Assembly: GCA_015039365.1 (NCBI GenBank)
Contig: WION01000258.1
Location: 1 to 64,000, forward strand
DNA: 64,000 bases
Direction: 5' to 3'
From: Amanita rubescens
Lineage: Eukaryota; Basidiomycota; Agaricomycetes; Agaricales; Amanitaceae
The notes below the pieces were generated by a model that was not told the DNA's origin, searched no databases, and saw only the letters and a list, made by a program, of their open reading frames with translations. Within the stretch, counting starts at the first letter, position 1. Each line of letters opens with the position of its first letter. Of the stretch, positions 1,780 through 56,968 are shown piece by piece. The position numbers were made by a program, and so were the translations under genes.

Positions 1780-2145
1780 TAGCGTGAAATAGGGACGGCT
1801 AAGTTGTTGGCATCATATTCGTCAGCCGTCTTAGTGAATACCGAACTAGCAACCCCACATGCCTAATGTTGAACGGGCCCTCGTCGTTGCATGATTCGCG
1901 GCAAGCAGGTTTCTGAGAATGACTGTACGTGGCCGCGAATGATATATACATAGTTCTCAAACCTTGCCGCGCGCAATAGGAACGTAACATCATGATTATT
2001 TAGTCCCTTGTGGACCTTTTTGATGGTTTGATAGCTCGTGGAATCGCCGAGTTGCCCGCATGCATTATAAAACAAGCGTCTCAACTCGAAAAGCATTTGA
2101 TGTTCTCTCAGCGGTCTGCAAGCTGGGCGACGGTTGATTTACTCG

Positions 2146-4863: not shown

Positions 4864-6279
4864 ATGACTTTGCCTCCCAACACGTCCCCTCACCGTAACA
4901 CGGCGTCAAGTATGCATGGCTCACCGTTTTCCGTCGCTGGCATGTCGACCTCAGGGAGTGCTCACCATCATAGTCCAAGCTTCAGTGGATGGGGAAGTGC
5001 CTCCGTAAATCCAAGCGGGTCTTTGACATCCTTTTCCGACTCATTATCTCAGAGTCGGAGTCAATATCAACCAGGATACTTGATGGTTCGTGTCGGCCTG
5101 TGCTTTCGCGAATGCGTCACTCACATAATGCTCAGTCAACATCACAGAACCTTGTTGGTCCTTTTCTTCGAGCTAAAACGCGTGACATGTGGCGTTAACA
5201 GACGATCGTGGCTTTCACTATAGAACGCTCAACAAGGCAGCCCAAGACCAGATGACGTGCCTATCGTTCAGACTAAAGCAAAATTGAACCAAGGGCTCGT
5301 GCGTGGAACTGCGTCAGAGTTTGGCATGGACTCGATGTTTGAGAGTTCAAGGTGTGTTACGTCTGCCTGATGTCTTGGGTTTGTAAAATTCTAAAGCATG
5401 TGCGCGTTAAAACCCAGAAAACGACAAACCCTTGCCGATGAAGATGCACCGCCCATGACTTCTGTAGCCGATATTCCACACGAGGCATATGTCGACTCGG
5501 CGCCCGCCGCATTTCAACCAAGGGTATGTATGAAAATATGTCACAGAACATAAAAATTTTAACTGGTACCCAGTCATCGACCTTTGGCACATCATCACTG
5601 TTCAAACCCCGAACCCAACCTAGCGCAATCAGTAATGGCATCCAGCAGTCACGTCAACAACGACCTACCCAAGAGCAACAAGTGCTCTACCTGATTGTGT
5701 TCGGTTATCCTCAAGACCGATATAGCGTAACAGTCGAATACTTCAAGTCGTTAGGCGATACCACTGGGCCTGACCTCAACACGGAAATTATGAACTGCTT
5801 TAAAATCGGTTACCGCGATCCTGGAGACGCCATGCGAGCTGTTCGTAAGAATGGTGAGGTGCTAGGCGGCAGTTATATGGTTGGTGTGAAATGGGCGGTA
5901 AGTCTTGCTGTCTAATAGGGCCATTCAAAGTCTGATCCGTTTCCAGGACCCAGCGCTAGCAGAGGCTCTGCTTGGCCAACTGTCTTTGGTACGGAGCACC
6001 AATGTTCTGCCAGACGTCTCAATACAACCACCAGCCGGGTTGGATGCAAACATGGCTGTTGACTCGAATGCCGCACAACAACCTCATTACGGGACGAACA
6101 CACCTTCTGTTGGTACTCCGATCAGGCTCGCACCTTCTGCGGCAGCATTTAGAAGAGCAACGGGTTCAGCTGATAAGGTACCACCGCCAAATCAACCTGG
6201 TCTAACTTCATCTAGAAGTTGGATTTCTGGTGGAGCTGGCAGGACTATACCACCCCCGGGAATATTCCACGAAGATTGA
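4864..6279 (+). CDS. NUP53: Nup53/Nup35-type nucleoporin with MPPN (RRM-like) domain
   Basis: Exons 4864-5085, 5136-5153, 5224-5351, 5418-5523, 5574-5897 and 5947-6279 join in frame with GT-AG introns and give about 376 residues. The N-terminal half is low-complexity Ser/Gly (SPFSVAG, FSGWGSASV), followed by the family segment PDDVPIVQTKAKLN. The MPPN/RRM_Nup35 domain follows (VLYLIVFGYPQ ... VEYFKSLGDT ... MRAVRKNGEVLGGSYMVGVKWA), and then a C-terminal tail rich in Pro and Ala. Nup53/35 proteins are scaffold nucleoporins that bind Nup170/155, Nic96 and the pore membrane. I see no break in this copy, whereas the inverted copy at 49,985-51,437 is disabled. This is probably the functional gene if there is no other elsewhere. 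Confidence 0.85.
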
Positions 6280-7854
6280 CGTTGCGGCGATTGGAGGGAA
6301 AACAGACTCTATTCAAAGAAGAAGCGTGTTAGGTCACGTATCGGATTTAATATTCGGCTGGTAGAATGTCCTGGACACGTTCAGTACTCAATTGGTTTTG
6401 GTAGTCATTTTCTGTTTTCTGTTTTCCACTTTGTGATTCGAGCAATCATCCGCTCCTAACGGAACGTCACACAGTAGCCATATTGAGACTGCCTCGTTCT
6501 GCACGGGGATGGTGGGGTCCAATTACACGCTGTCTACATTTATTAGTCCGGTCAACGCCCTTTACTGATCAATTAGAAGACTAGCTGGAGGAGGAAATTC
6601 TTCACACAAGAGCGTAGATTTCCCTAAAGGATCGTCTGCGGGTACAACGTAAACTTGGTGAATTTTTTAATTGTTTCTGAGCGGCGAGGCATGGAGTGAG
6701 AAGCTTCACCAGTTACCTGTGGAATTTGACAAATGAGAAAAATGTGAATGAGGAAGGATATTTCGTGTAGTGGAACTTTCAGTCATAGGGGCTGTGACAC
6801 TGGGAAACACTCGCGTCAAACGCCACAGCGAGTGAATCGGAACGATTTTCGTGTGTGTAACAACTTCTTTCTCCTTCAATCCACTTCATCCATAACTATA
6901 GATTCTTATACACTATATATCGGGAACATCGTGAACCTTCATTAAGATGGGAAATTCAATTATACATATACGGTCTTGAAGTCAGGGATACAACATGACA
7001 TAGGGGCTTGCCTGGCTCAAACCTGTACCCTTCGGCGGGCCTCGGAAGATTCCCTAAGCTTTTCGTAATCTGTGGCACTCCCTGATCATCACTCAGGTCA
7101 AAAACGTTACAAATTACTGACTGTAATAGGGATCAAATCAATCCTGACGCTACTCATGAAGAACTTGGAATAATAGGACCACGAATGAAGGAATATTGGG
7201 TCTCGCGAAACGCATAAGCAACCTCGCTCCATTCAATTTTCCGTCCTTCGACTCGCCAAAAGCCATCCGACAATCTCTGAGAACTCGGTAAAGATGGTGC
7301 CTGTAATGCACGACAATCAAAGGCGTCCCGTCACCAAACGGAGAATGCTCAAACCTAAACGCAATCCTGCAATCCTAGATCAGATGCAGCATTGAATTCA
7401 TTGGCTGTTCTTTTCCACGTCTGCTGAACAAGAGAGACGTAATGATTGATATTACGGCGACGATGTGGAGTGTCCATTGAGTCGGACAGCCTCACATGTG
7501 ACCTTGGGAGAGACCCCATTCATAGTACGCCACTATCGACCTGAAAGAAAAATGTCCACTTACCCTAATCAGTCACAGGGTAAGGAAACCACGTGCCAAT
7601 ACAACTGCTACAGTAAATAAGGTAAGTCAGTCACTAACCCATCCCTTGGCATATTCAAAATAAGAAGTGAAAAGATAACGGCATCTATCCGCGTGTTATG
7701 TGCCTGAAAAGTTCATGGGTAAGTGGAGAAAACCAAAAGAAAGGATACTGAACAAAAATGGAAAGCGAAAAAGCCATAAAAGCTCATGCGTTCGACGTCC
7801 TTTCTCCAGCAACATCTGCTTCCACCACTTCTACCAACTCTTCAGTTCACAGTC
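6280..7854. other. Duplicated intergenic DNA between nucleoporin and hydrophobin
   Basis: No gene is seen. The segment matches, in reverse complement, 48,400-49,980 and also 42,400-43,972. It contains the hydrophobin 5' flank, with a TATA-like stretch in the last 150 bases and a pyrimidine-rich leader before 7855. The strong conservation among three copies reflects duplication and is not evidence of coding. Confidence 0.5.
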
Positions 7855-8364
7855 ATGCGCTTCTCTCGTATTGCTCTCTTCGCCCTCCCCGCTCTTGCAG
7901 CTGCCTCAGCCGTCATGCCGCGCAACAGCTGCGATCACGATCACGGTCACCACGAGTGCTGCGACGACGTCTACACTGTCTGTATTCTTTTCTTGTCTGC
8001 AATAAGTAAAAGCTGAAAGCAACCTCAGGTCGATGAGCTTACTCCGGAGCGCATCACCATTCTTGAGCTGCTCGGCGTTGTCATTGCAGAAATTACTGAA
8101 CTCGTCGGTAGTAAGTGTATCAAATGAGACTTTTTGGACCGAATTTGACGATGTGATGGCAGTCGGGTGTGTTGATTATGAAGGCTCATGGTAAGCGACT
8201 TGAACAAATCAGGTTATAGCAAGACTGACGAATATCTTCTTTTTAGCAAACACCACGAGGTCTGCTGCGAGGAATACTTTCTTGGTAAATTCTGACCTTT
8301 TTTTCTTTCCCAATTATGGACTGATTATTCGCAGAGTGAACTTATCGGCGTTGATTGCATCTGA
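7855..8364 (+). pseudogene. Class I hydrophobin, acidic/His-rich type, last cysteine lost by a frameshift
   Basis: Exons 7855-7977, 8029-8110, 8163-8190, 8247-8284 and 8335-8364. A signal peptide (MRFSRIALFALPALAAASA) precedes the hydrophobin cysteine pattern: SCDHDHGHHECC, then a single Cys after LVGIG, then SCKHHEVCC. At the exon 4/intron 4 border there is one base more than in the sister copy at 47,880-48,391 (TTTCTTG against TTTTTG before GT). Splicing therefore joins out of frame and meets TGA at 8336-8338, giving about 91 residues without ELIGVDCI, which holds the eighth Cys. Hydrophobins self-assemble at air-water interfaces on aerial hyphae and fruit bodies and need all four disulphides. 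Either this copy is dead or the base is an assembly error. A noncanonical splice could rescue it. Confidence 0.8.
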
Positions 8365-9450
8365 GTTGACAACGTCCACGTTGTCTTGGAAAGAATATCT
8401 GCTGCGCACTGAGGTTCCCGTGTCATTGTAAACTTTGTACTGCTTTGTTTGTCAGAAACGTGTATGAAATATGATTTTTTTGTATCGTAATGGAGGGCTG
8501 ACCTCTGTATGTGAATGAAATATAAGCAACCGGCTCCGAAGGGGTCGCCATCCATTTCATGCACAGACGCAACAGCTAAATCTAAACGTGAATGATTTAG
8601 ATTAATATAAACACGGACCATCAATATAAAAATCGACTCGCATTATACTGTGGCAACTATCTTCTTCCGATCGGATGAGCTGTGGACCGGCATGCAAAGC
8701 GTTCCGGTGCATCTACGTGGAAGGAATCCAATTGTAACTGTTTACGATTAGCTGATTTACACGCTGGAGAGCCTTGAACAATCTAGAGTGCAGCAGCCAA
8801 GTTAGTACGCGGCCGTATAGTCGACCGTGGGAACAAGTGCTAATAACCCAACTCGACCAATCCCGTCGTGAACGCGCAAGAAGCTGAAAAGCGCAGCTGC
8901 GGGACACATACGCATATAATAATCAATGTGATTGATCACCGTTTAACGTTTAACGATACTTCCGCCACACCCCACTCGCATTTTCGCACTCCTTCTAAGT
9001 TCTAGCGACGGAATGATAAATATCTGATGTCGACGTCGTTAAACGCATTTGGTACGGGATCGTCCATTTGACTATTACCCAATGCTATCAATATCATCGA
9101 GTAAGGAGAATAATATCATAAGATGGACGATGGAAGGAAATGAGGCTTCAGCCTAAGTAGTATGGTGTGCGGATCCTGCATCAGGAACGAACGACATGTG
9201 GGATCCTCCGGGGTTGACAATAGATACCCAGAATCGGCGGCGAAAACTCTGTCGCCTGAACGCAGTGAACTGCACGAGCCAGCTATTCGTAGATACGGCA
9301 CCCGCCACGAGACATTCCACCAGGAACAGCCTCTGTCCGCCTGCTGATTCTGGAAAGGCCCGATCGCAAGAAATAGAAAATGGTGCATTCGGCATCATTT
9401 TCCGGCAAGATCTGTTAGCCCAATCAGTTCTTCAGTGAACACTCAGAGTC
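8365..9450. other. Hydrophobin 3' flank and spacer
   Basis: No gene is seen. The DNA is shared with 46,720-47,879 (reverse complement) and, more distantly, with 40,000-41,820. It holds the 3' end of the hydrophobin transcript and the 5' flank of the hydrophobin relic that starts at 9451. Confidence 0.45.
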
Positions 9451-9627
9451 ATGCACTTCTCTCATATTTCCTTCTTCGTTCTCTCTGCTGCCTCTGCCGT
9501 TGTGCCACGTGATACCAGCGAAGGACCGCGTTGCGAGACTGGTAGAGTCATTCAGTGCTGCAAGCACCGCTATTCTTCCTTCGATTGGCTGTGCAGTTGG
9601 ATAGCATTCAGAACATATATCTAGTAG
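9451..9627 (+). pseudogene. Truncated hydrophobin relic
   Basis: The frame begins MHFSHISFFVLSAASAVVP, a shortened version of the hydrophobin signal peptide seen at 7855. RCETGRVIQCC follows, which has the first Cys-X(n)-Cys-Cys spacing of class I hydrophobins, and the frame stops after about 58 residues. No downstream cysteine exons are found. The two homologous relics at 39,850-39,985 and 46,565-46,715 have lost even the start codon. Confidence 0.6.
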
Positions 9628-9829
9628 TAGCTATGTGATATTAGCTCATCGACAACCTGGTGAACGGTGAACCTTGAGCAAACTGAGAGTACGACAATCC
9701 AAAGCTGAGACTGTGGGAACCTCGTAGTCTACCCGGGCTGGTGCTCGCGAGCTTGAGCCAATCAAATCTTTCCGCAAGAAACCGAAAACACTGAATGAAA
9801 ACATATTAAATAAATGGCCGTACAAATGA

Positions 9830-10770
9830 TGTGCCTAATGACACTTCCTTCCACTCACCTAACTTTCCCAACGTGTATTCACGCACCCTAGCATCAGGAC
9901 ATGCATCTTCCAGCTCCACCACACTTGGACGTCCTTTGCCCCTTGGGACGCCCTCGCAACGGACGATGTCGACGGACAAGATGGCAGGCTCGCATCGCCA
10001 GCTGATAGACGCTATTTATAACATTGAATGACACGACATTGCTTAACGAATCAGAATAATCACCTTTTAACGTTTCATGAACCTTAGTAGTGGTCTCCAA
10101 GTTATGTGTGTATATGTGATGACACAGCGTTACGAATGGATGCGCGGACATCGAAACAGATGTTTTTTTCAGATCTCTCCGCATGCAAGGTATGATTCAT
10201 GTCTAAACACCCAACAGCGACCTGATGTTAATTCAGAAACAATAAGCAACCATGTACATATCCTCGTAAAGTCCGCAATGAAGCCTGGCGGCCTGGTATT
10301 CACGCTTCTAGTTGCGCAGATACAAGGTAAAAAACCCGTCCGCGGCCCGTCACGTTCAAACAGTTCAAAGACATTCGTGCTATCGGTCGCTCAACGTCAA
10401 TCGAGGTCCGACACGAGGGTGTTTGTAACTAAGAACGCGAACGTGCATTCTCAATCGCACCGACAACCTGGAAAACATCTCGTCGACGTCAGATCTCAGC
10501 CTGAGCATCTTAGCCTACTCACCGGCGTTGTTAAACAACACATCCACCTCCCATTTATGTTCACCGCCAGCTTCGTCATCCTCTAGCAGCGGCCTAACGT
10601 CTAGCTCGTGGACATCCGCGCCCTTCTCCTTCAACCCCCGCAGTTTCACCAAAAGACTGCGCATGAGCTGTTGCAATAACTTTGTCAGCTTGTTTAAGCG
10701 CTGCTAGTGCCGAATTGTGATTCGCGCTCTAGCCCTGTGCTGTAACGGCTTCGAAATTAATACCCGTGTG
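9830..10770 (-). pseudogene. Short-chain dehydrogenase relic (left arm)
   Basis: On the minus strand, fragments of the SDR gene at 53,648-54,909 are recognisable. Near 10,760 there is part of the TGxxxGxG region (reads as CACAGGGCT then decays). Next come ACAAAGTTATTGCAACAGC (the KVIATA strand), a piece around VDVLFNNAG near 10,530, and the C-terminal segment near 9,835-10,030. Frames are interrupted repeatedly, and the exon with the catalytic Tyr-x3-Lys is not visible. This is a decayed copy with no expected activity. Confidence 0.6.
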
Positions 10771-36633: not shown

Positions 36634-38362
36634 ATGGGCGCTCTCAACTGGGTCGTTCTTTTCTTCACCCACCCTTTGGAGTTCAGAAGCTTACTCCAGT
36701 TTTACATATACCATGAACAAAAGCGCGATATCAAAGCTATCAAAGAGCACCCAACGTCAGGTTGGGATAGAGCTTCTATGCAGAGGTGTTGGTCATTTCT
36801 CGATAAAACTAGCCGAAGTTTCGCTGCTGTGATCAAGGAACTCGAGGGTGACCTTGCACGAACAGTGAGTTGCGCATATATTTTGGTTTATTGGAATATA
36901 TGCTTATATATGCTAGATATGTTTATTTTATCTCGTCCTTCGAGGACTAGATACTATAGAAGATGATATGACGATACCTGATGACATCAAACAACCTATT
37001 CTTCGTTCATTTCACAAACATACCGTGACACCTGGTTGGACCTTTAGCGGTTGCGGGCCAAACGAGAAGGACAGACAACTTCTCGTCGAATATGACATCG
37101 TCGTAGAAGAGCTGAATCGTCTTACACCAGAGTACGCGTTAATTTCATTTCATTCTTGACTAGCAGCCTGACCGGGCAACGCGTAGCTACAAAGCCGTCA
37201 TAGTAGGACATATGCCATAAAATGGAAATCGGGATGGCTGACTACGCGCACAAAGCAGCTACAACAGGTTCCATATACCTTGACACCAGTCTCAGAATAC
37301 GATCTGTACTGCCATTATGTCGCGGGCCTCGTTGGCGAAGGTCTTTCACGTTTATTCTCCGTCTCAAAAAAAGAAGCGTCATGGTTAGGCGACCAGCTAG
37401 AGTTGTCCTGACTCCATGGGTCTCCTTCTCCAGAAAACCAACATCATCCGTGACTACCGAGAAGATGTTGAACAGAAGAGACATTTCTGGCCTCGCGAGA
37501 TTTGGGGAAAACATGGATTCAAAGAAATGAGCGAAATGTGCGCATGGGAGGGTAAAGAGGGCCCGGAAGCGGAGGATATCAAGCGGAGAGCGACGTGGGT
37601 GCAGAGCGGAATGATTCTAGACGCGCTCAGACACTCAACGGACGCGTTGGATTATCTCCGGGTATTGAAAAACCAAAGCGTGTTCAACTTTTGTTCAATT
37701 CCTGCCGTCATGGCGTTGGCAACTCTCGCTTTGTGTTACAACAACTCAGATATGTTTTTACGGAATATCAAGATTAGAAAAGCGGAAGCTGCTCAGGTTG
37801 GTATCGGATTTTTTTGAATCGTTTGTGGTTTGACGTCTGACGAATACCGAATGAATAGCTTATCATGCGCTCTACGAATCCTCGAGAAGTTGGACTGATT
37901 TTCCGCTCCTACGTTCGGAAGATACACGCGAAATGTAACCCAAAAGATCCCTACTTTATACGAATCTCCATCGCTTGCGGCAAGGCAAGTTAGATTCATT
38001 TACCCCAACTCGAACCACATTCTTATTCTTATTATTATTTTGGCATGCAGATCGAACAATGGAATGAACATCATTATCCATCTTTCGTCCTTGTCGTTCC
38101 CGACAAGTCTGGTTCAAAGCCAATGTTGAACACTTCCGATGCGCGCGTGCGTATTTTGGAGTTGGAAAATCACCTAGAGGCGGAGCTGTCCAAAAAGAAA
38201 CGGATAGAGGACATTCGCGCTGGTATCACTACCAATGGCGTGCCAAACAGCTCGAATGGAGGCGGAGGAGAGATCGAGGCACTCTTGTTTGTTGCTGGTG
38301 CTATGGTTTTGATTTTGGGTGCGACGGGGGCGGTTGTGTGGTTGGTGTTGAGGTTTTTCTAG
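36634..38362 (+). CDS. ERG9: Squalene synthase (farnesyl-diphosphate farnesyltransferase), full-length copy with frame breaks
   Basis: Condenses two farnesyl diphosphates to squalene on the ER membrane, the first sterol-specific step. Exons 36634-36864, 36917-37131, 37187-37796, 37859-37984 and 38051-38362 give about 496 residues if three extra bases are discounted. Seen: MGALNWVVLFFTHPLEF, the first aspartate motif DTIEDD (about residue 89), DLYCHYVAGLVGEGL, the second aspartate motif NIIRDYREDV, and a C-terminal membrane anchor (LFVAGAMVLILGATGAVVW). Exon 3 appears to carry three one-base insertions (about 37,206, 37,288 and 37,409). Together they restore the frame but scramble 68 codons including YCHYVAG. 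At the third site the partial copy at 44,192 lacks the extra base. The intron at 37,985-38,050 has a GC donor (AAG|GCAAGT). Confidence 0.88.
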
Positions 38363-38773
38363 CCGTTATCTATCGACTATTTTCTGCTTTGTTTTTGGCA
38401 CACTAATTTTATATCTATATGGAGTTACGTATTCTACTATCATCTGGATGCACAAACTCTGACTGCACAACACTCACGCCCGAATGTATCGTTCCCCGAG
38501 TCGTACCCGCTACTGCTGTGGTGCCGAAATAAGGTAACAGTGGGACCCGTGAGCTGGGTGCTGGACCAAGAACACGAGAGAGCAGGGAATTGATGGGGCT
38601 ATCACTCAGAGAATGGCCAAAGGTGGGTGCCGGGCGCTGGGGATGTGAGCGCGAAAGAGCAGATGGGGATGGCAGGTAACTGCCGTCCTGTTCCAGTTCA
38701 GTTGTGTTCTCACGTCTGTTGTCGGATAGCCAGTGCAACCCACTTGTCCTGGACTATGCCTCATATTCAAAGA

Positions 38774-39600
38774 GCCGCCTAACGATGACTCTGAGTGCGC
38801 GAATTGCGATTTCGGCACTAGTAGCGCTTGACAAAGTTATCGCAACAGCTCATGCGCAGTCTTTTAATGAAACAGGGGAGTTGAAGGAGAAGGGCGCAAA
38901 CGTGCACGAGCTAGGTGTTACGGCGCTGCTAGAGGAGTTGAAGACAATGATGAAGCCGGCAGTGGACATAGATTGTGTTGTTTAACAACGCTGGTGAGTA
39001 AGCTAAGATGCTCAGGTCGAAGTCTGACGTATTTTCAGGTTGTCGGTGCGATTGAGATTTCACGTTCGCGTTCAGCGTATCTGCGAACGGAACAGTGTCG
39101 GTGTTGTTCCCAGATTCAACTACAAGCGCGAATACCCGGGCGTCGGGCTTCATTGCGCGATAAAATGGACTTTACGAGGTATTTACATGGTTGCTTATTA
39201 TTTCTGAGTTAATTTCAGGTCACTGTTGGGTGTTTAGCTGATCATCTGTTTCGACCTCTGGGCTTTCCCCACATCATTCGTAACGCTGTGTCATCAATAC
39301 CAGCCACGTATACACACATTACTTGGAGAAGGCTAATGAAACGTTAAAATAAAAGGTGATTATTCTGATTCGTCAAGCAATGTCGTGTCCTTTTTCCTAT
39401 TCGATGTTATAAATAGCGTCAACCAGCCTGGCAATGCATTGAGCTTGCCATCTTATCCGATGACATCATCGGTTGCGAATGCGTCCCTAAGGGGTAAAGC
39501 CTAAAGGACGTCCAATTGTGATAGAGCCCGAAGATGCGTGGTCTAAGGTGTGTGAATACATGCTGGGAAGGTTAAGTGAGTGGAAGGGAGTTGCCATTAG
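38774..39600 (+). pseudogene. Short-chain dehydrogenase relic (tandem unit 1)
   Basis: ATG at 38,774 opens a frame that lacks the TGxxxGxG cofactor motif but retains KVIATAHAQSF, GELKEKGANVHEL and, after a frame change, FNNAG. Further pieces of the 53,648 gene follow: the exon with ATAAAATGGACTTTACGAG near 39,157 and the C-terminal segment ending LSEWKGVAI near 39,600. Cofactor binding and catalytic exons are broken. Confidence 0.65.
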
Positions 39601-39849
39601 GCACATTAATATTACAACCATTTATTTAGTATGTTCCCATTCAGCTGTGCCAGCGTTTTCGGTTCCCTGCGGAAAGATTTGATTGGTTCGAACTTGAGAG
39701 CACCAGTCACACGTTGGACTTCGAAGTTCCCACAGTCTCAGCGGGCCATCGACAGTTCGAACTCTCAGCTTGCTCAAGGCCCACCCTTCACCGGTTTGTC
39801 GATTAGTTGATTTCACATAGTTACTACCAGATATGCGTTCTGAATGCTA

Positions 39850-39985
39850 TTCAACTACGCAGCCAATCGAAGGAAGATAGCGGCACTTGCAGCACTACCG
39901 ATCTCGCAATGCGGTCCCCACGTGGCACAACGGCAGAGGCAGCTGGGAGAGAGCGAAGAGGATAATGCGAGAGAAGTGGCTGACT
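39850..39985 (-). pseudogene. Hydrophobin relic without start codon (tandem unit 1)
   Basis: On the minus strand CACTTCTCTCGCATTA and AGCTGCCTCTGCCGTTGTG match the signal-peptide region of the relic at 9451, but the ATG is replaced by AGCC. The cysteine exon has lost its CC pair, and the frame ends near the shared SSFDWL segment. Confidence 0.5.
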
Positions 39986-41819
39986 CTGAGTGTTCACTGA
40001 AGAGCTAACTGGGCCAACAGATCTTGGTGGAAAACAATGTCGAACGCACCAACTTTTATATATAGATTTTTCTCTCTCAATTTCTATCTTTTATCTCCGC
40101 CGTCTTTCTCTTTCGATCTTACCATGTGCTCATTATAACCACACGCGAATGGATTCCGTCGCTCCTTATTTCTTGTTTGGAAGACAGGGGACGGCCTGCG
40201 ACATGCTTGAGCGATCTTGACTGCCCCTTTTTCTTTTTTTTGCGAACATAGTAGTAATAGTATTAGTATAGTTATCCCGGAATCAATAAGCGGACGGAGG
40301 CTTATGTTCGAATATCTTGTAGGAGCTATATCTACGAATAGCACCGCCAATCCTGGGCATCTATTTCGAACCCGAAGGATCTCACATGCCATTCGTTCCT
40401 AATGTAGTATCCGCACACCATACTACTTAGGCCGAAGCCTCATTTCCTTCCGTCGTCCATCTTATAATATCCTTCTCCCTACTCGATGATATTGATAGCA
40501 TTCGGTAGTAGTCGAATTGACGATCCCGTCCCAAATGCGTTTAACGACGTCGACCTCGGGTATTTGTCATTCCGCCGCTAGAAAATCACGAGCGGAGTGA
40601 AGTATCGTTAAACGGTAATAATGATTATAATGTATATGTGTCCCCCAGCTGCGCTTTTCAGCTTCTTGCGCGTTCAAAGTTCACGCCCGACGAGATCATG
40701 ATTGGTCGAATTGAGGTTAGCACTTATTCCCACGGTTTCAGACTGTCGATCGCCACGGGGTGACTTGGCTGCGGCACTCTAGATTCCGAGGCCGACTATA
40801 AGGAGGAATCGGTTTTTTTAAGCTCATGTTTTTTGTAACACTTTAAGTTGCCGATGATGGCCGAGGCCCTCTGAAAAAAACAAACTAATCACCATGTTTT
40901 TTTGCCAATGTTACTTGCATCTGGTTCTCACAAATATTATACATATAGGTCTACAGATTTAATAATAAATTATAACTGGTCGTATTTAGAGATTCATAAG
41001 TTTTGGGCAACTCTTTTCCATTTCATTGTTGAATTGTTTTCGCTTCGAACTGTAGCGGCAAATACCGACGCGCGGTATGGCAAGCAGGACCAAATAGTGC
41101 ATGGCCGCCACGGCCCACAAGTTTTATATACTACGTTTAATACTCTATTTCCTCGTCACGGTATATAGTACGCGTCGCTTCTTGCTGGGTAATCTCTTTT
41201 TGTTTGTATTTGCTCCAAATGTATCGTATGAACGTATGGTAGCCGCTTAGGTGTGACTAATCTCTGTTTGTATTTGCTCCAAACGTATGGCCTCGGATAT
41301 GCCACGCAAAGCGGTGGCCCACAGCACCAAGTTGTTCAAGGCTCGTCAGTGTGTAAATCAGCTAATCACAAACAGTTACAATTGGACTCCCTGCCACATA
41401 AATGCACCGAAGCGCTCTGCATCGTCACAGCTCATCCGATCTGAAGAAGATGCTGAGATAGCGAGCATCGCATTTGCCTTACACTGCGAGTCGATTTTTA
41501 CAACCGTAGTCCGTGTTTCGCCTAAATCAGTCAAGAGCCACTTAGTTGTTACGCTCACGTTTAGATTTAGCCGTTGCATCGGTTCATGAAATGACCAGCG
41601 GGGACGAGGGAAATTTTACCTCTTCGGAGCCGGTCGCTTATATCAACACTTTCATGCGCATACAGAGGTTAGTCCTCCATTGCGATGCCATTGTGACGCG
41701 AAAATTTCATATTCCATACACATATTTCTGACAAAACGAGATAGTACAAAGTTTACAATGACACGGGAATCTCAGTGCGCAGCAGAAATTCTTTCCAAGA
41801 CAACGTGGATGTTGTCAGC
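39986..41819. other. Spacer between hydrophobin relic and hydrophobin
   Basis: No gene is seen. Most of it is shared with 46,720-47,879 and, inverted, with 8,365-9,450. A stretch at about 40,800-41,330 is present only in this unit (AT-rich, with a local repeat TTTGTATTTGCTCCAAA near 41,207 and 41,267). This is a small insertion without visible transposon ends. Confidence 0.4.
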
Positions 41820-42378
41820 TCAGAGAATGATAGGGGAGCAATTAATGCCGATAAGTTGTTGCTGCGAATGATCAGTCCATAGTTGGGAAAGAAAAAGGTC
41901 CAGAACTTACCGTATTGACGTTCTGGCAGCAAACATTCTGCTGGTAGCTAAAAAGAAGATGATCCGTCAGTCTTGCTATGACTTGATTTATTCAAATTAC
42001 TTACCAGCCTCCACCAAGTACACTGACACAGCCAACTGCCATTACATTGTCAGGTTCAGGTTCAAAAAGTCGTATTTGATATACTTACCACCAACAAGTG
42101 CAGTAATGTCTCCAACGTTAACTCCAATCAGCGCAAGAATGATCGCGAGCGTCGGAGTGATCTGAGTGGCCTGTGATTGCTTTCAGCTTTTTACTTATTG
42201 CAAACGCGAAAAGAACACAGACAGTGAATGTTTGGTTGCAGCACTCGTTGGAGCCGGTGGAGCACGACTGTCCGCCGCCGCCGCCGCCACCGCCGTGACC
42301 ATTGCCATTGCGTGGCATGATGGCAGAGGCAGCTGCAAGAGCGGGGAGAGCGAAGAGAGCAATGTGAGAGAAGCGCAT
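41820..42378 (-). CDS. Class I hydrophobin, Gly-rich conventional type, intact
   Basis: Exons on the minus strand are 42223-42378, 42089-42170, 42005-42035, 41911-41947 and 41820-41861. All introns are GT-AG, about 50 bases, and the joined frame is open for 115 residues. Signal peptide MRFSHIALFALPALAAASA, a Gly-rich linker, then all eight cysteines: SCSTGSNECC, GCVSVLGGGC, NVCC and NCSPIIL. The central helix ITPTLAIILALIGVNVGDITALVG is typical of class I hydrophobins, amphipathic wall proteins coating aerial structures. Neighbours are duplicated flanks and relics. Its exons differ far more from those of the sister genes (7855 and 48,391) than its introns do. Confidence 0.93.
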
Positions 42379-43972
42379 GACTGTGAGTGTTTACTGAAGA
42401 GCTGGTAGAACTGAAGAGCTAGCAGATGTTGCTGGAGAAACGGCGTCGAACGAACGAGCTTTTATAGCTTTTTCGCTTTCCGTTTTTGTTCCTTGTCGTT
42501 TGTTTTGGTTTTCTCCACTTACCCATGAGCTTTGCAGGCACATAACACGCGTATAGATGCCGTTATACTTTCATTTCTTATCTTGAATATGACAAGGGAT
42601 TGCTTGGCTTGGGTGAATTTGCTGTAACAGTTACGGCACGTACGTTCCTTACCCTGTGGCTGATTAGGGTAAGTTGATATTTTTCTATAAGTCGAATGCG
42701 GCATACTATGATGTATGGGGGAGACTGGGCGTCTCCCACACTGAGGCTAATTGCATCAAGATCACGTGTGAGGCGGCTCGGTGCTGTCCGACTCAATGTA
42801 TATTCCAAATATCATCGTAGCCGTGGTATGTCCTACGTCAATCATGACGTCTCTTTGTTCAACAGTCGGGGAAAGAACGGCGAATGAATTCAATTTTGCA
42901 TCTAAATTGGGATTGCGGGATTGCGCTTAGGTTTGACCCCATGCTCCGATCGGCGACGGGACGCCGTTGATTGTCGTCCGTTACAGGCACCATCTTTACC
43001 GACTTCTCAGAGATTGTCGGTTAGGAATACCTGGCTTTTGGCGAGTCGAAGGAAGGAAATTTGAATGGAGCAAGGTTACTTATACGTTTCGCGAGACCCA
43101 ATATTCCTTCTTTCGTGGTCCGTTATTCCAAGTTCTCCACGAGTAGACGCGTCAGGATTGATTTGATCCCTTGTAACAGTCATTAAAGTCAGTATTTTGT
43201 AACGTCATTGACATGAGTGATGATAAGGGAGTGCCACAGCTTATGAAAAGATTAGGGAATCTCCCGGGGCACGCCGAATGGTACAGGTTTGATGGAAAGT
43301 CTCTATGTCACGTTGTATCCCCATTACCGATGACTTCCAAGGTTCCACATTTGTCGCAACATGTAGAATTAGATTTTCCATCTTAATTGAGGTCCATAAT
43401 GTTCCCGATATATAGAGTGTATGGAATTCTATAGTTACGCTGTGATGAAATGGATTGAAGGAGAAAGAAGTTATTACACACATGAAAATCGTTCCGATTC
43501 GCTCGCTCTGTCGTTTCAAGGCTTGGCGAATATAGACGCAGAGAAGTTATTTCCCAGCGTCGTCACAACGCCCATGACAGAAAGTTCCCCGACACGAAAC
43601 ATCCTTCCTCGTTCACATTTTTCACATTTGTCAAATTCCATAGGTGAATGGTGAAGTTTGATGGCAGGTGACATGTTTTCGCTCCAAGCCTCGCCACTCA
43701 GAAACACATAAAAAATTCACAAGTGTTCCACCTCGTTCGAACCACGTTGTACCCGCAGATGATTCTTTTAGGGCGATCCACGCTCTTGTGTGAAGAATTC
43801 CTCCTCCAGCCAGTCTTCTAATTGATCGGTAATGGGCGTTGACGGGACTAAATATAGACAACGTGTAATTGGATCCCACATCCCCGTGCGGAACGAGGGA
43901 GTGATGATACTGCCACTGTACGACAGTGTACCACATTCCGTTCGGAGCGGATGATTGCTCGGATCGCAAAGC
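42379..43972. other. Hydrophobin 5' flank and duplicated spacer
   Basis: No gene is seen. Shared with 48,392-49,880 and, inverted, with 6,480-7,854. It includes the hydrophobin promoter region. Confidence 0.45.
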
Positions 43973-45143
43973 GGACTAGATACTATAGAAGATGATATAA
44001 CGATACCTGATGACATCAAACAACCTATTCTTCGTTCATTCCACAAACATACCGTGACACCTGGTTGGACCTTTAACGGTTATACGATCTGTACTGCCAT
44101 TATGTCGCGGGCCTCGTTGGCGAAGGTCTTTCACGTTTATTCTCCGTCTCAAAAAAAGAAGCGTCATGGTTAGGCGACCAGCTAGAGTTGTCCAACTCCA
44201 TGGGTCTCCTTCTCCAGAAAACCAACATCATCCGTGACTACCGAGAAGATGTTGAACAGAAGAGACATTTCTGGCCTCGCGAGATTTGGGGAAAACATGG
44301 ATTCAAAGAAATGAGCGAAATGTGCGCATGGGAGGGTAAAGAGGGCCCGGAAGCGGAGGATATCAAGCGGAGAGCGACGTGGGTGCAGAGCGGAATGATT
44401 CTAGACGCGCTCAGACACGCAACGGACGTGTTGGATTATCTCCGGGTATTGAAAAACCAAAGCGTGTTCAACTTTTGTTCAATTCCTGCCGTCATGGCTT
44501 TGGCAACTCTCGCTTTGTGTTACAACAACTCGGACATGTTTTTACGGAATATCAAGATTAGAAAAGCGGAAGCTGCTCAGGTTGGTATCGGATTTTTTTT
44601 GAATCGTTTGTGGTTTGACGTCTGACGGATACCGAATGAATAGCTTATCATGCGCTCTACGAATCCTCGAGAAGTTGGACTGATTTTCCGCTCCTACGTT
44701 CGGAAGATACACGCGAAATGTAACCCAAAGATCCCTACTTTATACGGATTTCCATCGCTTGCGGCAAGGCAAGTTAGATTCATTTACCCCAACTCGAGCC
44801 ATATTCTTATTATTATTATTTTGGCATGCAGATCGAACAATGGAACGAACATCATTATCCTTCTTTCGTCCTTGTCGTTCCCGACAAGTCTGGTTCAAAG
44901 CCAATGTTGAACACTTCCGATGCGCGCGTGCGTATTTTGGAGTTGGAAAATCACCTAGAGGCGGAGCTGTCCAAAAAGAAACGGATAGAGGACATTCGCG
45001 CTGGTATCACTACCAATGGCGTGCCAAACAGCTCGAATGGAGGCGGAGGAGAGATGGAGGCCTTCTTGTTTGTTGCCGGTGCTATGGTTTTGATTTTGGG
45101 TGCGACGGGGGCGGTTGTGTGGTTGGTATTGAGGTTTTTCTAG
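43973..45143 (+). pseudogene. Truncated squalene synthase copy
   Basis: The copy starts within exon 2 (DTIEDDITIPDDIKQPIL) and so lacks the first 85 or so residues. After WTFNG, about 230 bases, including the exon 2/3 intron, are deleted relative to the 36,634 copy, and the frame shifts. From 44,192 on, the second aspartate motif (NIIRDYREDV), the GC-AG intron and the C-terminal anchor are present. A missing A near 44,728 (CCAAAG against CCAAAAG) adds another shift. It cannot encode an active enzyme. Confidence 0.88.
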
Positions 45144-45591
45144 CCGTATCTATTGACTATTTTCTGCTTTGTTTTTGGCACACTAATTTTATATCTATAT
45201 GGAGTTACGTATTCTACTATCATCTGAGTGCACAATACTCACGGCCGCTCCGCGTGTCGGAATGTATCGTTCCCCGAGTCGTACCCGCTACTGCTGTGTT
45301 GCCGAAATAAGGTAGCAGTGGGGCTGGGAGGGTGCTGGACTAAGAGCACGAGAAAGCAAGGAATTGATGGGGCTATCACAGAGAGAATGGCCAAAGGTGG
45401 GTGCAGGGCGCTGGGGATGTGAGCGCGAAAGAGCAGATGGGGAAGGTAGGAAAACCGTCCGAGACTTGGGTAACTACCGTCCTGTTCCAATTTAATGCGT
45501 TCTCACGTCTGTTGTCGGATGGCTAGTGCAACCCACTTGGCCTGGACTATGCCTCATATTCAAAGAGCCGCCTAACTCTCATAAGTAAATG

Positions 45592-46375
45592 ATGACTCTG
45601 AGAGCGCGAATTGCGGCACTAGTAGCGCTTGAACAAGCTGACAAAGTTATCGCCACAGCTCATGCGCAGTCTTGAAACCGGGGAGTAGAAGGAGAAGGAC
45701 GCAAACGTGCACGAGCTAGATGTTACGGCGCTGCTAGCGGACATAGTAAATGGGAGGTGGATTGTGTTGTTTAACAACGCTGGTGAGTAAGCTAAGATGC
45801 TCAGGCCGAAGTCTGACGTATTTCCAGGTTGTCGGTGGGATTGAGATTTCACGTTCGCGTTCAACGTGTCGGTGCTGTTCCCAGATTCAACTACAATCGT
45901 GAATACCCGGGCTTCATTCCGCGACAAAATGGATTTTACGAGGTATTTAGTTGCTTACTGTTTCTTAATTTCAGGTCGCTGTTGGGCCCCCTATGCAGAG
46001 AGTTCACCTAACGATCTGGGGGAAAACATCTGTTTCGACCTCTGAGCTTTCCCTACATTATTCGTAACGCTGTGTCATCAATACGAGCCACGTATACACA
46101 CATTACTTGGAGACCACTGCTGTGATTATTCTGATTCGTCAAGCAATGTCGTGTCCTTTGTCTTATTCGCTGTTATAAATAGTGTCGACCAGCCTGGCAA
46201 TGCATCGAGTTTGCCATCTTGTCCGATGACATCGTCGGTTGCGAGTGCGTCCCCACGGGGTAACGCCTAACTTAGGACGTCCAATTGTGATAGAACCCGA
46301 AGATGCGTGTTCTAAGGTGTGTGAATACATGCTGGGAAAGTTAAGTGAGTGGAAGGGAGTTGCCATTATGTTCCC
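45592..46375 (+). pseudogene. Short-chain dehydrogenase relic (tandem unit 2)
   Basis: Very close to the relic at 38,774 but with further deletions. KVIATAHAQS is followed by a stop, and the segment between TALL and the FNNAG piece is shortened. The exon with GCGACAAAATGGATTTTACGAG (about 45,920) and the C-terminal segment remain. No open frame spans the domain. Confidence 0.65.
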
Positions 46376-46564
46376 ATTCAGCTGCGCCAGCGTTTTCGGT
46401 TCCCTGCGGAAAGATTTGATTGGTTCGAACTTAGACTTCGAAGTTCCCAGACTCAGCGGGCCATCGACAGTTCGAACTCTCAGCTTGCTCAAGGCCCACC
46501 CTTCACCAGTTTGTCGATCAATTGATTTCGCATAGTTACTACCAAATATGCGTTCTGAATGCTA

Positions 46565-46715
46565 TTCAACTACGCAGCCAATCGAAGGAAGATAGTGGCA
46601 CTTGCAGCACTACCGATCTCGCAATGCAGTCCCCACGTGGCACAACGGCAGAGGCAGCTGGGAGAGAGCGAAGAGGATAATGCGAGAGAAGTGGCTGACT
46701 CTGAGTGTTCACTGA
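46565..46715 (-). pseudogene. Hydrophobin relic without start codon (tandem unit 2)
   Basis: Minus strand: the signal-peptide region (CTGCCTCTGCCGTTGTGCC) is recognisable, the start codon is replaced as in the relic at 39,850-39,985, and the frame ends near SSFDWL. The shared loss of the ATG shows it was lost before the tandem duplication. Confidence 0.5.
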
Positions 46716-47879
46716 AGAGCTAACTGGACCAACAGATCTTGGTGGAAAACAATGTCGAACGCACCAACTTTTATATATAGATTTTTTCTCCCTCAAATTT
46801 CTATCTCTTATCTCCGCCGACTTTCTCTTTCGATCTTACCATGTGCTCATTATAACCACACGCGAATGGATTCCGTCGCTCCTTATTTCTTGTTTGGAAG
46901 ACAGGGGACGGCCTGCGACATGCTTGAGCGATGTTGACTGCGCGTTTTCTTTCTGCGAACATAGTAGTGATAGTATAGTTTTCCCGGAATCAATAAGCGG
47001 ACGGAGGCTTATGCTCGAATACCTTGTAGGAGCTATACCTACGAATAGCACCGCCGATCCTGGGCATCTATTTCGAACCCGAAGGATCTCACATGCCATT
47101 CGTTCCTAATGTAGTATCCGCACACCATACTACTTAGGCTGAAGCCTCATTTCCTTCCGTCGTCCATCTTATAATATCCTTCTCCCTACTCGATGATATT
47201 GATAGCATTCGGTAGTAGTCGAATTGACGATCCCGTCCCAAATGCGTTTAACGACGTCGGCCTCGGGTATTTGTCATTCCGCCGCTAGAAAATCACGAGC
47301 GGGGTGAAGTATCGTTAAACGGTGACTAATAATGATTATAATGCATATGTGTCCCGCAGCTGCTTCTTGCGCGTTCACGCCCGATGGGGTTAACATAGCG
47401 CTTGTTCCCACGGTCGACTGTACGTACTACGGTCGCGTACTAACTTGGCTGCGGCACTCTAGATTGTTCAAGGCTCTCCAGTGTGTAAACCAGCTAATCG
47501 TAAACAGTTACAATTGGATTCCTTCCACGTAGATGCACCGGAGCGCTTTGCATGCCGGTCCACAGCTCATCCGATCGGAAGAAGATAGTTGCCACAGTAT
47601 AATGCGAGTCGATTTTTATATTGATGGTCCGCGTTTATTTAATCTAAATCATTCACGTTTAGATTTAGCTGTTGCGTCTGTGCATGAAATGGATGGCGAC
47701 CCCTTCGGAGCCGGTTGCTTATATTTCATTCACATACAGAGGTCAGTCCTCCATTACGATACAAAAAATTCATATTTCATACTCGTTTCTGACAAACAAA
47801 GCAGTACAAAGTTTACAATGACACGGGAACCTCAGTGCGCAGCAGATATTCTTTCCAAGACAACGTGGACGTTGTCAAC

Positions 47880-48391
47880 TCAGATGCAATCAACGCCGAT
47901 AAGTTCACTCTGCGAATAATCAGTCCATAATTGGGAAAGAAAAAAGGTCGAAATTTACCAAAAAGTATTCCTCGCAGCAGACCTCATGGTGTTTGCTAAA
48001 AAGAAGATATTCGTCAGTCTTGCTATAACCTGATTTGTTCAAGTCACTTACCATGAGCCTTCAAAATCAACACACCCGGCTGCCATCACATCGTCACATT
48101 CGGTCCAAAAAAGTCTCATTTGATACACTTACTACCGACGAGTTCAGTAATTTCTGCAATGACAACGCCGAGCAGCTCAAGAATGGTGATGAGCTCCGGA
48201 GTAAGCTCATCGACCTGAGGTTGCTTTCAGCTTTTACTTATTGCAGACACGAAAAGAATACAGACAGTGTAGACGTCGTCGCAGCACTCGTGGTGACCGT
48301 GATCGTGATCGCAGGGGCCGTTGCGCGGCATGACGGCTGAGGCAGCTGCAAGAGCGGGGAGGGCGAAGAGAGCAATACGAGAGAAGCGCAT
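47880..48391 (-). CDS. Class I hydrophobin, acidic/His-rich type, intact
   Basis: Exons on the minus strand are 48266-48391, 48133-48214, 48052-48079, 47960-47996 and 47880-47909, with GT-AG introns and an open frame of 100 residues. The signal peptide MRFSRIALFALPALAAASA is followed by PCDHDHGHHECC, a central helix VDELTPELITILELLGVVIAEI, GCVDFEGSCKHHEVCC and SELIGVDCI, so all eight cysteines are present. The mature chain has many Asp, Glu and His residues, unlike the conventional paralogue at 41,820. The DHDHGHH cluster between Cys1 and Cys2 could bind metal, but this is only a guess. The sister at 7855 differs by a few residues and a one-base frameshift. Confidence 0.92.
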
Positions 48392-49984
48392 GACTGTGAA
48401 CTGAAGAGCTGGTAGAAAAGAAGAGCTAGCAGATGTTGCTGGAGAAACGGCGTCGAACGGACGAGCTTTTGTAGCTTTTTCGCTTTCCGTTTTTTGTTCC
48501 TTGTCGTTTGTTTTGGTTTTCTCCACTTACCCATGAGCTTTGCAGGCACATAACACGCGGATAGATACCGTTATACTTTCATTTCTTATCTTGAATATGA
48601 CAAGGGATTGCTTGGCTTGGGGTGAATTTGCTGTAACAGTTACGGCACGTACGTTCCTTACCCTGTGGCTGATTAGGGTAAGTTGATATGTTTCTATAAG
48701 TCGAATGGCATACTATGATGTATTGGGGAGACTGGGCGTCTCCCACACTGAGGCTAATTGCCTCAAGATCACGTGTGAGGCGGCTCGGTGCTGTCCGACT
48801 CAATGTATATTCCAAATATCATCGCAGCCGTGGTATGTCCTATGTCAATCATGACGTCTCTTTTGTTCAACAGTCGGGGAAAGAACGGCGAATGAATTCA
48901 ATTTTGCACCTAAATTGGGATTGCGGGATTGCGCTTAGGTTTAACCATGCTCCGATCGGCGACGGGACGCCGTTGATTGTCGTCCGTTACAGGCACCATC
49001 TTTACCGACTTCTCGGTTAAGAATACCTGGCTTTTGGCGAGTCGAAGGAAGGAAATTTGAATGGAGCAAGGTTACTTATACGTTTCGCGAGACCCAATAT
49101 TCCTTCTTTCGTGGTCCGTTATTCCAAGTTCTCCACGAGTAGACGCGTCAGGATTGATTTGATCCCTTATAACAGTCATCAAAGTCAGTATTTTGTAACG
49201 TCGTTGACATGAGTGATGATAAGGGAGTGCCACAGCTTACGAAAAGATTAGGGAATCTCCCGGGGCACGCCGAAGGGTACAGGTTTGATGGAAAGTCTCT
49301 ATGTCACGTTGTATCCCCATTACCGATGACTCCAAGGTTCCACATTTGTCGCAGCATGTAGAATTAGATATTCCATCTTAATTGAGGTCCATGATATTCC
49401 CGATATATAGAGTGTATTGGACTCTGTCGTTTCAAGGCTTGGCGAATATAGACGCAAGAAGTTATTCCCAGCGTCGTCACAACGCCCATGACGGAAAGTT
49501 CCCCGACACGAAACATCCTTCCTCATTCACATTTTTCACATTTATCAAATTCCATAGGTGAATGGTGAAGTTTGATGGCAGGTGACATGTTTTCGCTCCA
49601 AGCCTCGCCACTCAGAAACACATAAAAAATTCACAAGTGTTCCACCTCGTTCGAACCACGTTGTACCCGCAGATGATTCTTTTAGGGCGATCCATGCTCT
49701 TGTGTGAAGAATTCCTCCTCCAGCCAGTCTTCTAATTGATCGGTAATGGGCGTTGACGGGACTAAATATAGACAACGTGTAATTGGATCCCACATCCCCG
49801 TGCGGAACGAGGGAGTGATGATGCTGTGCCACTGTACGACATTCCGTTCGGAGCGGATGGCTGCTCGAATCGCAAAGCGGAAAACAGAAAATGTCTTGGT
49901 ATAACCACCTGACCATCAAAATCAATTGAACGTACTGAACGTGTCCAGCATATTCTACCAGCCGAATATTAAATCCAATACGTG
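48392..49984. other. Hydrophobin 5' flank and duplicated spacer
   Basis: No gene is seen. Same DNA as 42,379-43,972 and the reverse complement of 6,280-7,854. Confidence 0.45.
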
Positions 49985-56240: not shown

Positions 56241-56812
56241 AGAAGGTAGCCCGCAACCTGAGCTCCGTCCATATAATGATTAGTACGGTGAGGAAAGGCG
56301 AAGGGCTTGAACGCACATGGGCTATTCGTGAACTAGGGCAACGGTGCCATGGTAAGAGGGGGTTTCAAATGCAGGATTTAGATAAGACATACGCGCTTTT
56401 CGCTATCCGCTGTGAAAAGTGGCATGAAATTGACATCTGACGAAAAGAACGTCAACACGTTACTCATTACTTATGAACGCCACCGAATCGATCATAGTAT
56501 TGCGTCCAAGCTAAGGATAATCCCCAATAGATCGTGACCCTGGGCTAGTCTAAGGCCCGTTCTTTTTGGGGAGGCGCTGACCCTGCAAGGGCAGCCTTGC
56601 CCGGGCAATATCAATTTTCATCTTCCGCTGTGTCTGTATAGTTTGTTACATAATACGTAAAGTCGGGTCGTGTATGTAGCATACAAGCAAAAATAAAGTA
56701 GTTTACGTAGCTTTATTGCACTGCGGTGTGAGCTGCTTATCTCACAATTTGACATACTGTATAAAGAACAGGTTACGACATAATTCAGGCAAGCAAAAAA
56801 GTACGTCGCAGT

Positions 56813-56907
56813 AGCCCACCGCGAGGGTCGAACTCGCAGCCTTCAGATGACACTTCCCGGATTGATCCGTAAGAGTCTGACGCTCTATCCGATTGAGCTA
56901 GGCGGGC
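56813..56907 (-). tRNA. tRNA-Lys(CUU) with an intron
   Basis: On the minus strand, the acceptor arms GCCCGCC/GGTGGGC, D stem GCTC/GAGC, anticodon stem TCAGA/TCTGA and T arm GCGAG-TTCGACC-CTCGC match the tRNA at 13,232. The loop reads C-T-CTT-A, giving anticodon CUU, with an intron of about 22 bases after it. Confidence 0.92.
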
Positions 56908-56968
56908 GACAGGCTTTAAAACTCCGAAACTTTACATCATTCGCGATACTGCAACTCGTTTGCGATGA

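What the first reader, a model, noticed from the sequence alone, without database searches (positions are those of the whole stretch)
41820..48391. Hydrophobin paralogues whose introns are better conserved than their exons
I aligned the conventional gene (41,820-42,378) by hand with the acidic-type genes (7855-8364 and 47,880-48,391). In exon 4, 19 of 36 aligned positions differ, and in exon 2, 26 of 82 differ. Intron 1 has about 6 substitutions and one indel in 52 positions, and intron 3 about 8 changes in 57. The signal peptide is nearly identical. Coding DNA diverging faster than the introns it abuts suggests diversifying selection on the mature hydrophobin, or replacement of exons by conversion from another hydrophobin.
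Basis: seen in the sequence. Interest (0 to 1): 0.75.

Follow-up and report, generated by a model that had tools for sequence, protein, structure and literature searches.

The report
Acidic mushroom hydrophobin with fast exons
In the blusher mushroom a copy of an ordinary water-repellent coat protein gene appears to have been rewritten into a very acidic, histidine-rich version while its introns drifted at the normal pace, and one copy was probably later pasted over a neighbouring gene just behind that neighbour's promoter.

Summary
Against the conventional gene C (42,378-41,820), acidic genes A (7,855-8,364) and B (48,391-47,880) differ at 15% of intron sites but, in the mature protein, at 36-37% of replacement and 33-38% of silent sites. 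Introns are ordinary: flanks differ by 18-20%. Mature-region dN/dS is 0.94-1.12, so the usual test shows no positive selection. Composition does: 16 net D/E gains among 43 replacements, reached in 0 of 6,000 neutral simulations from C and 2 of 6,000 from B. B's cysteine domain has charge -16.8 and 6 His; among 112 relatives none is below -5.3 or has more than 1 His. Exon-by-exon conversion is unsupported. Whole-gene conversion is supported: B is A-like over about 1 kb (192 of 202 informative sites) and C-like outside (456 of 499), switching just upstream of the ATG. A is frameshifted. Best reading: directional selection made an acidic class I hydrophobin in Amanita rubescens, and conversion put it behind a C-type promoter. 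Raised silent divergence in exons is unexplained and keeps an opsin-like rival open.

The parts
41820..42378 (-). Gene C: conventional class I hydrophobin, 115 aa, 8 Cys; exons 42378-42223, 42170-42089, 42035-42005, 41947-41911, 41861-41820
   Evidence: gene model; Pfam PF01185 49.2 bits, cut-off 23; deposited as partial F5887DRAFT_1021078
47880..48391 (-). Gene B: acidic, His-rich class I hydrophobin, 100 aa, 8 Cys; exons 48391-48266, 48214-48133, 48079-48052, 47995-47959, 47909-47880
   Evidence: identical to deposited F5887DRAFT_1085911; Pfam PF01185 40 bits, cut-off 23; charge -16.8, 6 His in the cysteine domain
7855..8364 (+). Gene A: acidic copy, inverted; one-base insertion in exon 4 truncates it at 91 aa (stop ends at 8339) and removes C8
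47404..48378 (-). Conversion tract in B (A-like): 192 of 202 informative sites match A; 5' edge between 48409 and 48378, 3' edge between 47404 and 47395
7868..8834 (+). Likely donor tract in A; edges 7837-7868 and 8834-8851
   Evidence: an AAACAC indel narrows the 5' edge to about 7837-7847 if inherited
48410..49881 (-). 5' flank and promoter side of B, C-like
   Evidence: identities per 100 columns; BLAST 95.7% over 470 bp at 49422-49881
37297..43975 (.). Tandem unit carrying C
   Evidence: self-BLAST
44082..49881 (.). Tandem unit carrying B; 147/3315 B-C differences outside the tract in the aligned part
1806..10716 (.). Inverted copy carrying A; homology to the B side runs in pieces from 1806; A-C divergence outside the tract 560/3154 (17.8%) in the part aligned (6301-10800)
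9451..9624 (+). Hydrophobin relic in the A unit: signal peptide and first cysteines, then stop
39760..40090 (-). Same relic in the C unit, start codon lost and frameshifted
46480..46800 (-). Same relic in the B unit, start codon lost and frameshifted

Best explanation
A and C are old duplicate class I hydrophobins whose noncoding divergence is about 18%. In the A lineage directional selection on the mature protein replaced small and polar residues with Asp, Glu and His, keeping the eight cysteines and leaving 20 of 23 large hydrophobic positions hydrophobic, so exons outran introns. Later the C unit was duplicated in tandem, giving C and a proto-B, and an interlocus conversion copied A's whole gene over proto-B from just upstream of the ATG. 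This placed the acidic protein behind a C-type promoter. A is now frameshifted, leaving B as the only intact acidic copy found. Shown: divergence levels, composition bias, mosaic tract, A's frameshift. Inferred: order and direction of events, selection as the cause, and a strongly anionic, possibly cation-binding hydrophobin coat as the function.
For: Introns 31/209 and flanks 18-20% against mature pN 0.36. With dS fixed to the noncoding rate, omega is 2.6-2.8 and omega = 1 is rejected at p 2e-7 to 1e-9. 16 net D/E gains in 43 replacements: 0 of 6,000 neutral simulations from C, 2 of 6,000 from B; restricted to codons from the second cysteine group on, 14 net gains in 37: 0 of 6,000 and 5 of 6,000. 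Acid gains replaced G, S, N, Q, T and A only: 0 of 23 large hydrophobic positions against 16 of 46 others, p = 0.0006. C shares more residues with the outgroup than B does in 117 of 118 hydrophobins, 1 tie, so most change is on the A/B side. Mosaic: inside the tract B = A at 192 of 202 sites, outside at 43 of 499; longest B = A run 45 against a maximum of 11 in 2,000 shuffles. A-B divergence in the tract (20/964) is below B-C outside it (147/3315), so the conversion is probably younger than the duplication.
Against: Silent divergence in the mature exons is also above background: pS 0.334 (B-C) and 0.379 (A-C); fourfold sites of unchanged codons 8/21 and 8/17; against introns plus flanks p 0.01 and 0.003 for S, 0.04 and 0.006 for fourfold, and 0.05 and 0.02, 0.06 and 0.01 after dropping the doubtfully aligned N-terminus. 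Simple positive selection does not predict that, and fixing dS to the noncoding rate fits worse (2dlnL 4.2-10.4). Conventional dN/dS is not above 1. The His gain alone is only mildly unusual: 76, 45 and 23 of 2,000 simulations reach 6 His. The simulations ignore protein constraint other than cysteines and stops; polarity rests on proteins, not on an outgroup gene. B's hydropathy (0.28) is lower than in all but 1 of 112 relatives, so it may be a weaker hydrophobin. No expression data. The assembly appears to contain more than one haplotype (paired hits).
Confidence: 0.62

Rival explanations
1. Opsin-type history: the acidic and conventional genes split long ago (true neutral divergence about the exon silent level, 0.4-0.5) and later conversions homogenised introns and flanks, while selection rejected tracts that changed the functionally diverged exons.
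For: Both pS and pN of exons exceed introns and pN does not exceed pS significantly, the signature reported for gibbon L/M opsins (PMC3213168, passages read). A conversion between these units is seen. A-B divergence is patchy along the unit.
Against: Introns here are 49-57 bp between exons of 28-156 bp, so several tiny tracts ending near exon borders would be needed. Average noncoding divergence is similar everywhere measured (5' flank 17.7%, introns 15%, 3' flank 19.7%, unit outside the tract 17.8%), though no formal test of evenness was run and intron 2 is at 23%. Signal-peptide fourfold sites (3 of 15, my count from the codon list) also sit near background, but are too few to differ from 8/21. 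It still needs selection for acidic exons.
Confidence: 0.22
2. Exon segment switching or conversion from another hydrophobin, as claimed for viper three-finger toxins (ASSET).
For: Same gross pattern of conserved introns and signal peptide with divergent exons (PMC2474615, passages read).
Against: Differences are spread through all five exons rather than in unrelated blocks. No donor found: a DNA search with B gave three matches, all in this window (the tool calls its counts lower bounds), and the paralogues read on C41/C135, C1 and C594 are not acidic by eye (P0004 on C1 has 6% D/E). Further weak hits were not all modelled.
Confidence: 0.06
3. Relaxed constraint: A and B are drifting pseudogene-like copies.
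For: omega near 1; A is frameshifted.
Against: Neutral drift should not exceed the noncoding rate twofold nor give 16 net acid gains; B keeps 8 Cys, splice sites and frame.
Confidence: 0.05
4. B's mosaic is an assembly artefact of near-identical repeats.
For: Genome of 75.7 Mb with paired hits of equal score on different contigs and coincident contig ends at window 56,181.
Against: B differs from A by 2.1% inside and from C by 4.4% outside the tract, so it is not a copy of either assembled sequence; a chimera of unassembled alleles is not excluded.
Confidence: 0.05

Closest known systems
Class I hydrophobins of Agaricomycetes (PF01185; SC16 of Schizophyllum commune, PC1 of Phanerochaete carnosa)
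   Same: Eight-cysteine pattern, Pfam hit over the curated cut-off; the five best PDB fold matches of the low-confidence B model are hydrophobins; signal-peptide-like N-terminus by eye
   Different: B has 18 D/E, 1 K/R and 6 His in 74 residues; of 112 relatives the highest acid fraction is 8.5% against 24%, and none has more than 1 His
Acidic hydrophobins of Wallemia ichthyophaga and W. sebi (PMC3849046, passages read)
   Same: Hydrophobins with an unusually high proportion of acidic residues, moderate hydrophobicity and cysteines kept
   Different: There most of the species' hydrophobins are acidic and the authors link this to salt; here one paralogue is acidic beside a conventional twin in a woodland mushroom, and it is His-rich. 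Their percentages were not retrieved for a numeric comparison
Gibbon L/M opsin genes (PMC3213168, passages read)
   Same: Paralogue exons more diverged than introns at both silent and replacement sites, with conversion active in the array
   Different: There the introns total 3.0-3.3 kb; here each is about 50 bp and matches the flanks in divergence
Viper three-finger toxin genes, ASSET (PMC2474615, passages read); accelerated venom phospholipase A2 genes (recalled)
   Same: Conserved introns and signal peptide, divergent mature exons, cysteines kept, surface charge changed
   Different: No block switching seen here; change has one direction, toward acidity
Heterobasidion hydrophobins reported under positive selection (PMC3879219, abstract and section 14 read)
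   Same: Basidiomycete hydrophobin paralogues with reported dN/dS above 1
   Different: No intron comparison or charge shift in the parts read

Membership tests
Class I hydrophobin (PF01185) | Curated Pfam score | tested here: met
   B 40 bits, C 49.2 bits, cut-off 23; A was not scanned against Pfam
Class I hydrophobin (PF01185) | C-CC-C-C-CC-C pattern of eight cysteines in B and C | tested here: met
   B and C match the pattern
Class I hydrophobin (PF01185) | Eight cysteines in gene A | tested here: not met
   frameshift removes C8
Class I hydrophobin (PF01185) | Secretion signal | not tested
   N-terminus looks like a signal peptide by eye; no predictor was run
Class I hydrophobin (PF01185) | Hydrophobin fold | tested here: inconclusive
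   B model mean pLDDT 59.6; best five PDB matches are hydrophobins, four at E below 0.001
Class I hydrophobin (PF01185) | Self-assembly into an amphipathic film | not testable with these tools
   needs purified protein
Positive selection by dN/dS | omega significantly above 1 with synonymous sites as reference | tested here: not met
   mature region 1.12 and 0.94, 2dlnL 0.10 and 0.03
Positive selection by dN/dS | Replacement rate above the noncoding neutral rate | tested here: met
   omega 2.6-2.8, p 2e-7 to 1e-9, on a model whose fixed dS fits worse than a free one
Interlocus gene conversion | Bounded tract matching one paralogue inside flanks matching another | tested here: met
   192/202 against 43/499 informative sites
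   the one tract fitted has edges just upstream of the ATG and about 470 bp past the stop; shorter tracts were not searched for separately
Opsin-type intron homogenisation | Intron divergence below exon silent divergence | tested here: met
   S against introns p 0.003 and 0.001; against introns plus flanks p 0.01 and 0.003
Opsin-type intron homogenisation | Conversion tracts confined to introns | tested here: inconclusive
   introns too short; their divergence is like that of the flanks; no second species

The most novel reading that the evidence does not exclude
B is a cation-responsive hydrophobin. The segments DHDHGHHE (between C1 and C2) and KHHE (between C5 and C6) would be held together by the C1-C6 and C2-C5 disulfides (connectivity recalled) into a His/acid site, and the acidified surface makes film assembly depend on metal ions, calcium or pH. 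Selection built this in one gene copy, and conversion then made it share the promoter type of its conventional twin, so the fungus would lay down mixed films.
Probability: 0.2. Interest if true: 0.72.

Novelty: new variant of a known kind. Interest (0 to 1): 0.52.

Why it matters
Basidiomycete hydrophobin families expand and diverge, but the forces behind this are called poorly understood (PMC3879219 abstract). Here noncoding DNA interleaved with the exons gives an internal clock, and the direction of change (mature charge at pH 7 about -1.5 in C, -16 in B) says what was selected. The locus also shows a coding region apparently moved behind another promoter by conversion, starting almost at the ATG. 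It is a compact, testable case of charge evolution in a protein that must stay surface-active, and a caution that dN/dS alone would have missed it.

Tried and rejected
Introns as specially conserved: rejected, they match the flanks. Exon-bounded conversion: set aside for lack of such breakpoints or a donor. dN/dS above 1: not met by counting or ML. Silent changes as by-products of neighbouring replaced codons: 7 of 26 unchanged codons next to a replaced codon carry one, against 2 of 8 others, no difference. A neighbouring gene as a neutral yardstick: the Nup35-like sequence has stops and frame shifts in the B copy and was found, within the window, only in the A and B units, so it cannot date A against C. 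Structure prediction of B gave a weak model (mean pLDDT 59.6), so no charge map was drawn. An allelic copy of the genes: none found by DNA search, nor of the window at 26-29 kb. Outgroup DNA: the genome tool states that it holds no relatives of this genome; the viral and metagenome collections were not searched, so outgroups are proteins only.

The alignment near C1 in exon 1 is uncertain; the rate tests and the acid simulation were repeated from the second cysteine group on with the same conclusion, though the silent excess weakens. Six of 118 relatives lacked the full cysteine pattern used and were left out of the charge comparison; of 245 relatives found only the 120 listed could be used, two of them B and C themselves. 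The profile that found them included B.
Full report
Setting. The window is the first 64,000 bases of a 74,988-bp contig (C177) of a 75.7 Mb genome. Two proteins deposited from Amanita rubescens lie on a contig of the same length and are B and part of C. Two further A. rubescens hydrophobins, P0003 and P0004, lie on contigs of 415,399 and 1,667,397 bp, the lengths of C135 and C1 here, where hydrophobin matches were found. The organism is therefore A. rubescens, an ectomycorrhizal mushroom (lifestyle recalled).

Genes. All three genes have four introns of 49-57 bp at the same places. C encodes a conventional 115-aa class I hydrophobin; B a 100-aa acidic one, identical to deposited P0002; A is a copy of the acidic type with one inserted base in exon 4, which ends the protein at 91 aa without the eighth cysteine. 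B and C exceed the Pfam hydrophobin cut-off. A DNA search with B found three places in the genome, these three (the tool calls such counts lower bounds).

The observation. Region by region, B-C: exons 31/126, 25/82, 9/25, 16/37, 9/30; introns 5/51, 12/53, 6/56, 8/49. A-C: exons 1-4 30/123, 26/82, 8/25, 16/37 (exon 5 not compared because of A's frameshift); introns 6/51, 12/52, 7/56, 6/49. The claim of faster exons stands, at p about 1e-6 for mature replacement sites against introns.

What is unusual, exon or intron? A-C divergence is 64/362 in the 5' flank, 86/437 in the 3' flank and 560/3154 over the aligned unit outside the B tract. Introns at 31/208 (interior, splice ends removed, 29/172) are close to that. 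The introns are ordinary; the mature exons are fast.

Selection. Pairwise codon ML gives omega 1.12 (B-C) and 0.94 (A-C) for the mature region, and 0.89 and 0.77 for all codons, not different from 1, because silent divergence is raised too: pS 0.334 and 0.379, fourfold sites of unchanged codons 8/21 and 8/17. With noncoding divergence imposed as the silent rate omega is 2.6-2.8 and omega = 1 is rejected, but that imposed rate itself fits worse than a free one (p 0.007 and 0.0013; 0.04 and 0.009 without the N-terminus). Independent of any rate, the changes have a direction. Of 43 replacements between C and B, 17 are to D/E and 1 is from D/E (one D to E change counts in both), a net gain of 16. 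Neutral simulation from C reached this in 0 of 6,000 runs and from B in 2 of 6,000; from the second cysteine group on, 0 and 5 of 6,000. The gains replaced G, S, N, Q, T and A, never any of 23 large hydrophobic residues, against 16 of 46 other positions; of the 23, 11 changed, 8 of them to another large hydrophobic residue (my count). Five His were gained; that alone is reached in 76, 45 and 23 of 2,000 simulations at three transition biases, so the acid shift carries the argument. Among 112 of 118 relatives with the full cysteine pattern the highest acid fraction is 8.5% (B 24%), the lowest charge -5.3 (B -16.8) and the highest His count 1 (B 6). C is closer than B to 117 of 118 relatives, with one tie; where B and C differ the C residue is commoner in 26 of 40 columns, the B residue in 10, tie in 4. 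So most, not all, of the change is on the acidic side. Limits: the simulations do not model structural constraint.

The silent excess. Positive selection alone should leave silent sites at background. The excess over introns plus flanks is modest (p 0.01 and 0.003; 0.05 and 0.02 after dropping the doubtful N-terminus) and is not concentrated next to replaced codons. Signal-peptide fourfold sites are at background (3 of 15, my count) but are too few to differ from 8 of 21. This is the main unexplained point and the reason the opsin-type rival keeps 0.22. That rival, reported in gibbons with the same S and N pattern (PMC3213168, passages), would require several conversion tracts of about 50 bp fitted between exons; similar average noncoding divergence inside and outside the gene speaks against it, though evenness was not tested formally.

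The mosaic. In a three-way alignment of the units B matches C outside and A inside a segment at 48,378-47,404 (A 7,868-8,834): 192 of 202 informative sites against 43 of 499; the longest run of A-type sites is 45, against a maximum of 11 in 2,000 shuffles. The 5' edge lies between A 7,837 and 7,868, and an AAACAC indel narrows it to within about 20 bp upstream of the ATG. The 3' edge lies between 8,834 and 8,851. Inside, A-B differ at 20/964; outside, B-C at 147/3315. The simplest history is C-type tandem duplication, then A-to-B conversion of the whole gene, with A decaying. Reverse copying (B to A) would require B to have kept an acidic gene inside an otherwise C-like unit, which is less simple but not excluded. 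The result is an acidic coding region behind a C-type promoter.

Function. B keeps the eight cysteines, and its low-confidence model still has Schizophyllum SC16 and HYD1, Phanerochaete and Serpula hydrophobins as its five best matches. It most likely remains a secreted surface-active coat protein with a strongly anionic face, although its hydropathy is among the lowest of the set (1 of 112 at or below). Wallemia is the known precedent for acidic hydrophobins, tied by its authors to salt (PMC3849046, passages); salt seems an unlikely cause here. Cation or metal binding by the His/acid loops is my inference, untested.

Literature. Searches for hydrophobin with positive selection, paralog and intron (10 of 10 listed), with Amanita rubescens (4 of 4), with acidic or charge terms (15 of 311) and with gene conversion (9 of 9) listed no title or abstract start that describes this locus or an intron-exon contrast in hydrophobins. 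A contrary case, seen in the listing only, is purifying selection in Trichoderma class II hydrophobins (PMC2253510). A search on metals in A. rubescens gave a listing only and is not used. The library holds open-licence papers only.

Noticed in passing
9451-9624 (+), 40090-39760 (-), 46800-46480 (-): Each of the three units also carries a relic of a second hydrophobin (leader, signal peptide and first cysteines only); two have lost the start codon.
   Followed up: partly
56181-64000; contigs C85 and C692: Two other contigs end exactly at window 56,181, 100% identical over the 320 bp tested there and 98% at 60.5-63.9 kb. The probes at 10.8-13.2, 26-29 and 53-56.2 kb have no full-length second copy, which suggests a haplotype fork or a hemizygous cluster.
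   Followed up: partly
15602-17691 and 30934-32956: A 2-kb direct repeat at about 83% identity, apparently unrelated to the hydrophobin units; not identified.
   Followed up: no
36944-39230 and 43973-45986: The tandem unit carrying B seems to start inside a squalene/phytoene synthase gene: 44,077-44,622 matches PF00494 only from profile position 113 on.
   Followed up: partly
5442-5915 (+) and 50850-50415 (-): Nup35-type RRM sequence in the A and B units, with stops and frame shifts in the B copy.
   Followed up: partly
41820-42378: The deposited model of gene C is partial: as held here it reads into intron 2 and lacks the last three exons (P0001).
   Followed up: yes
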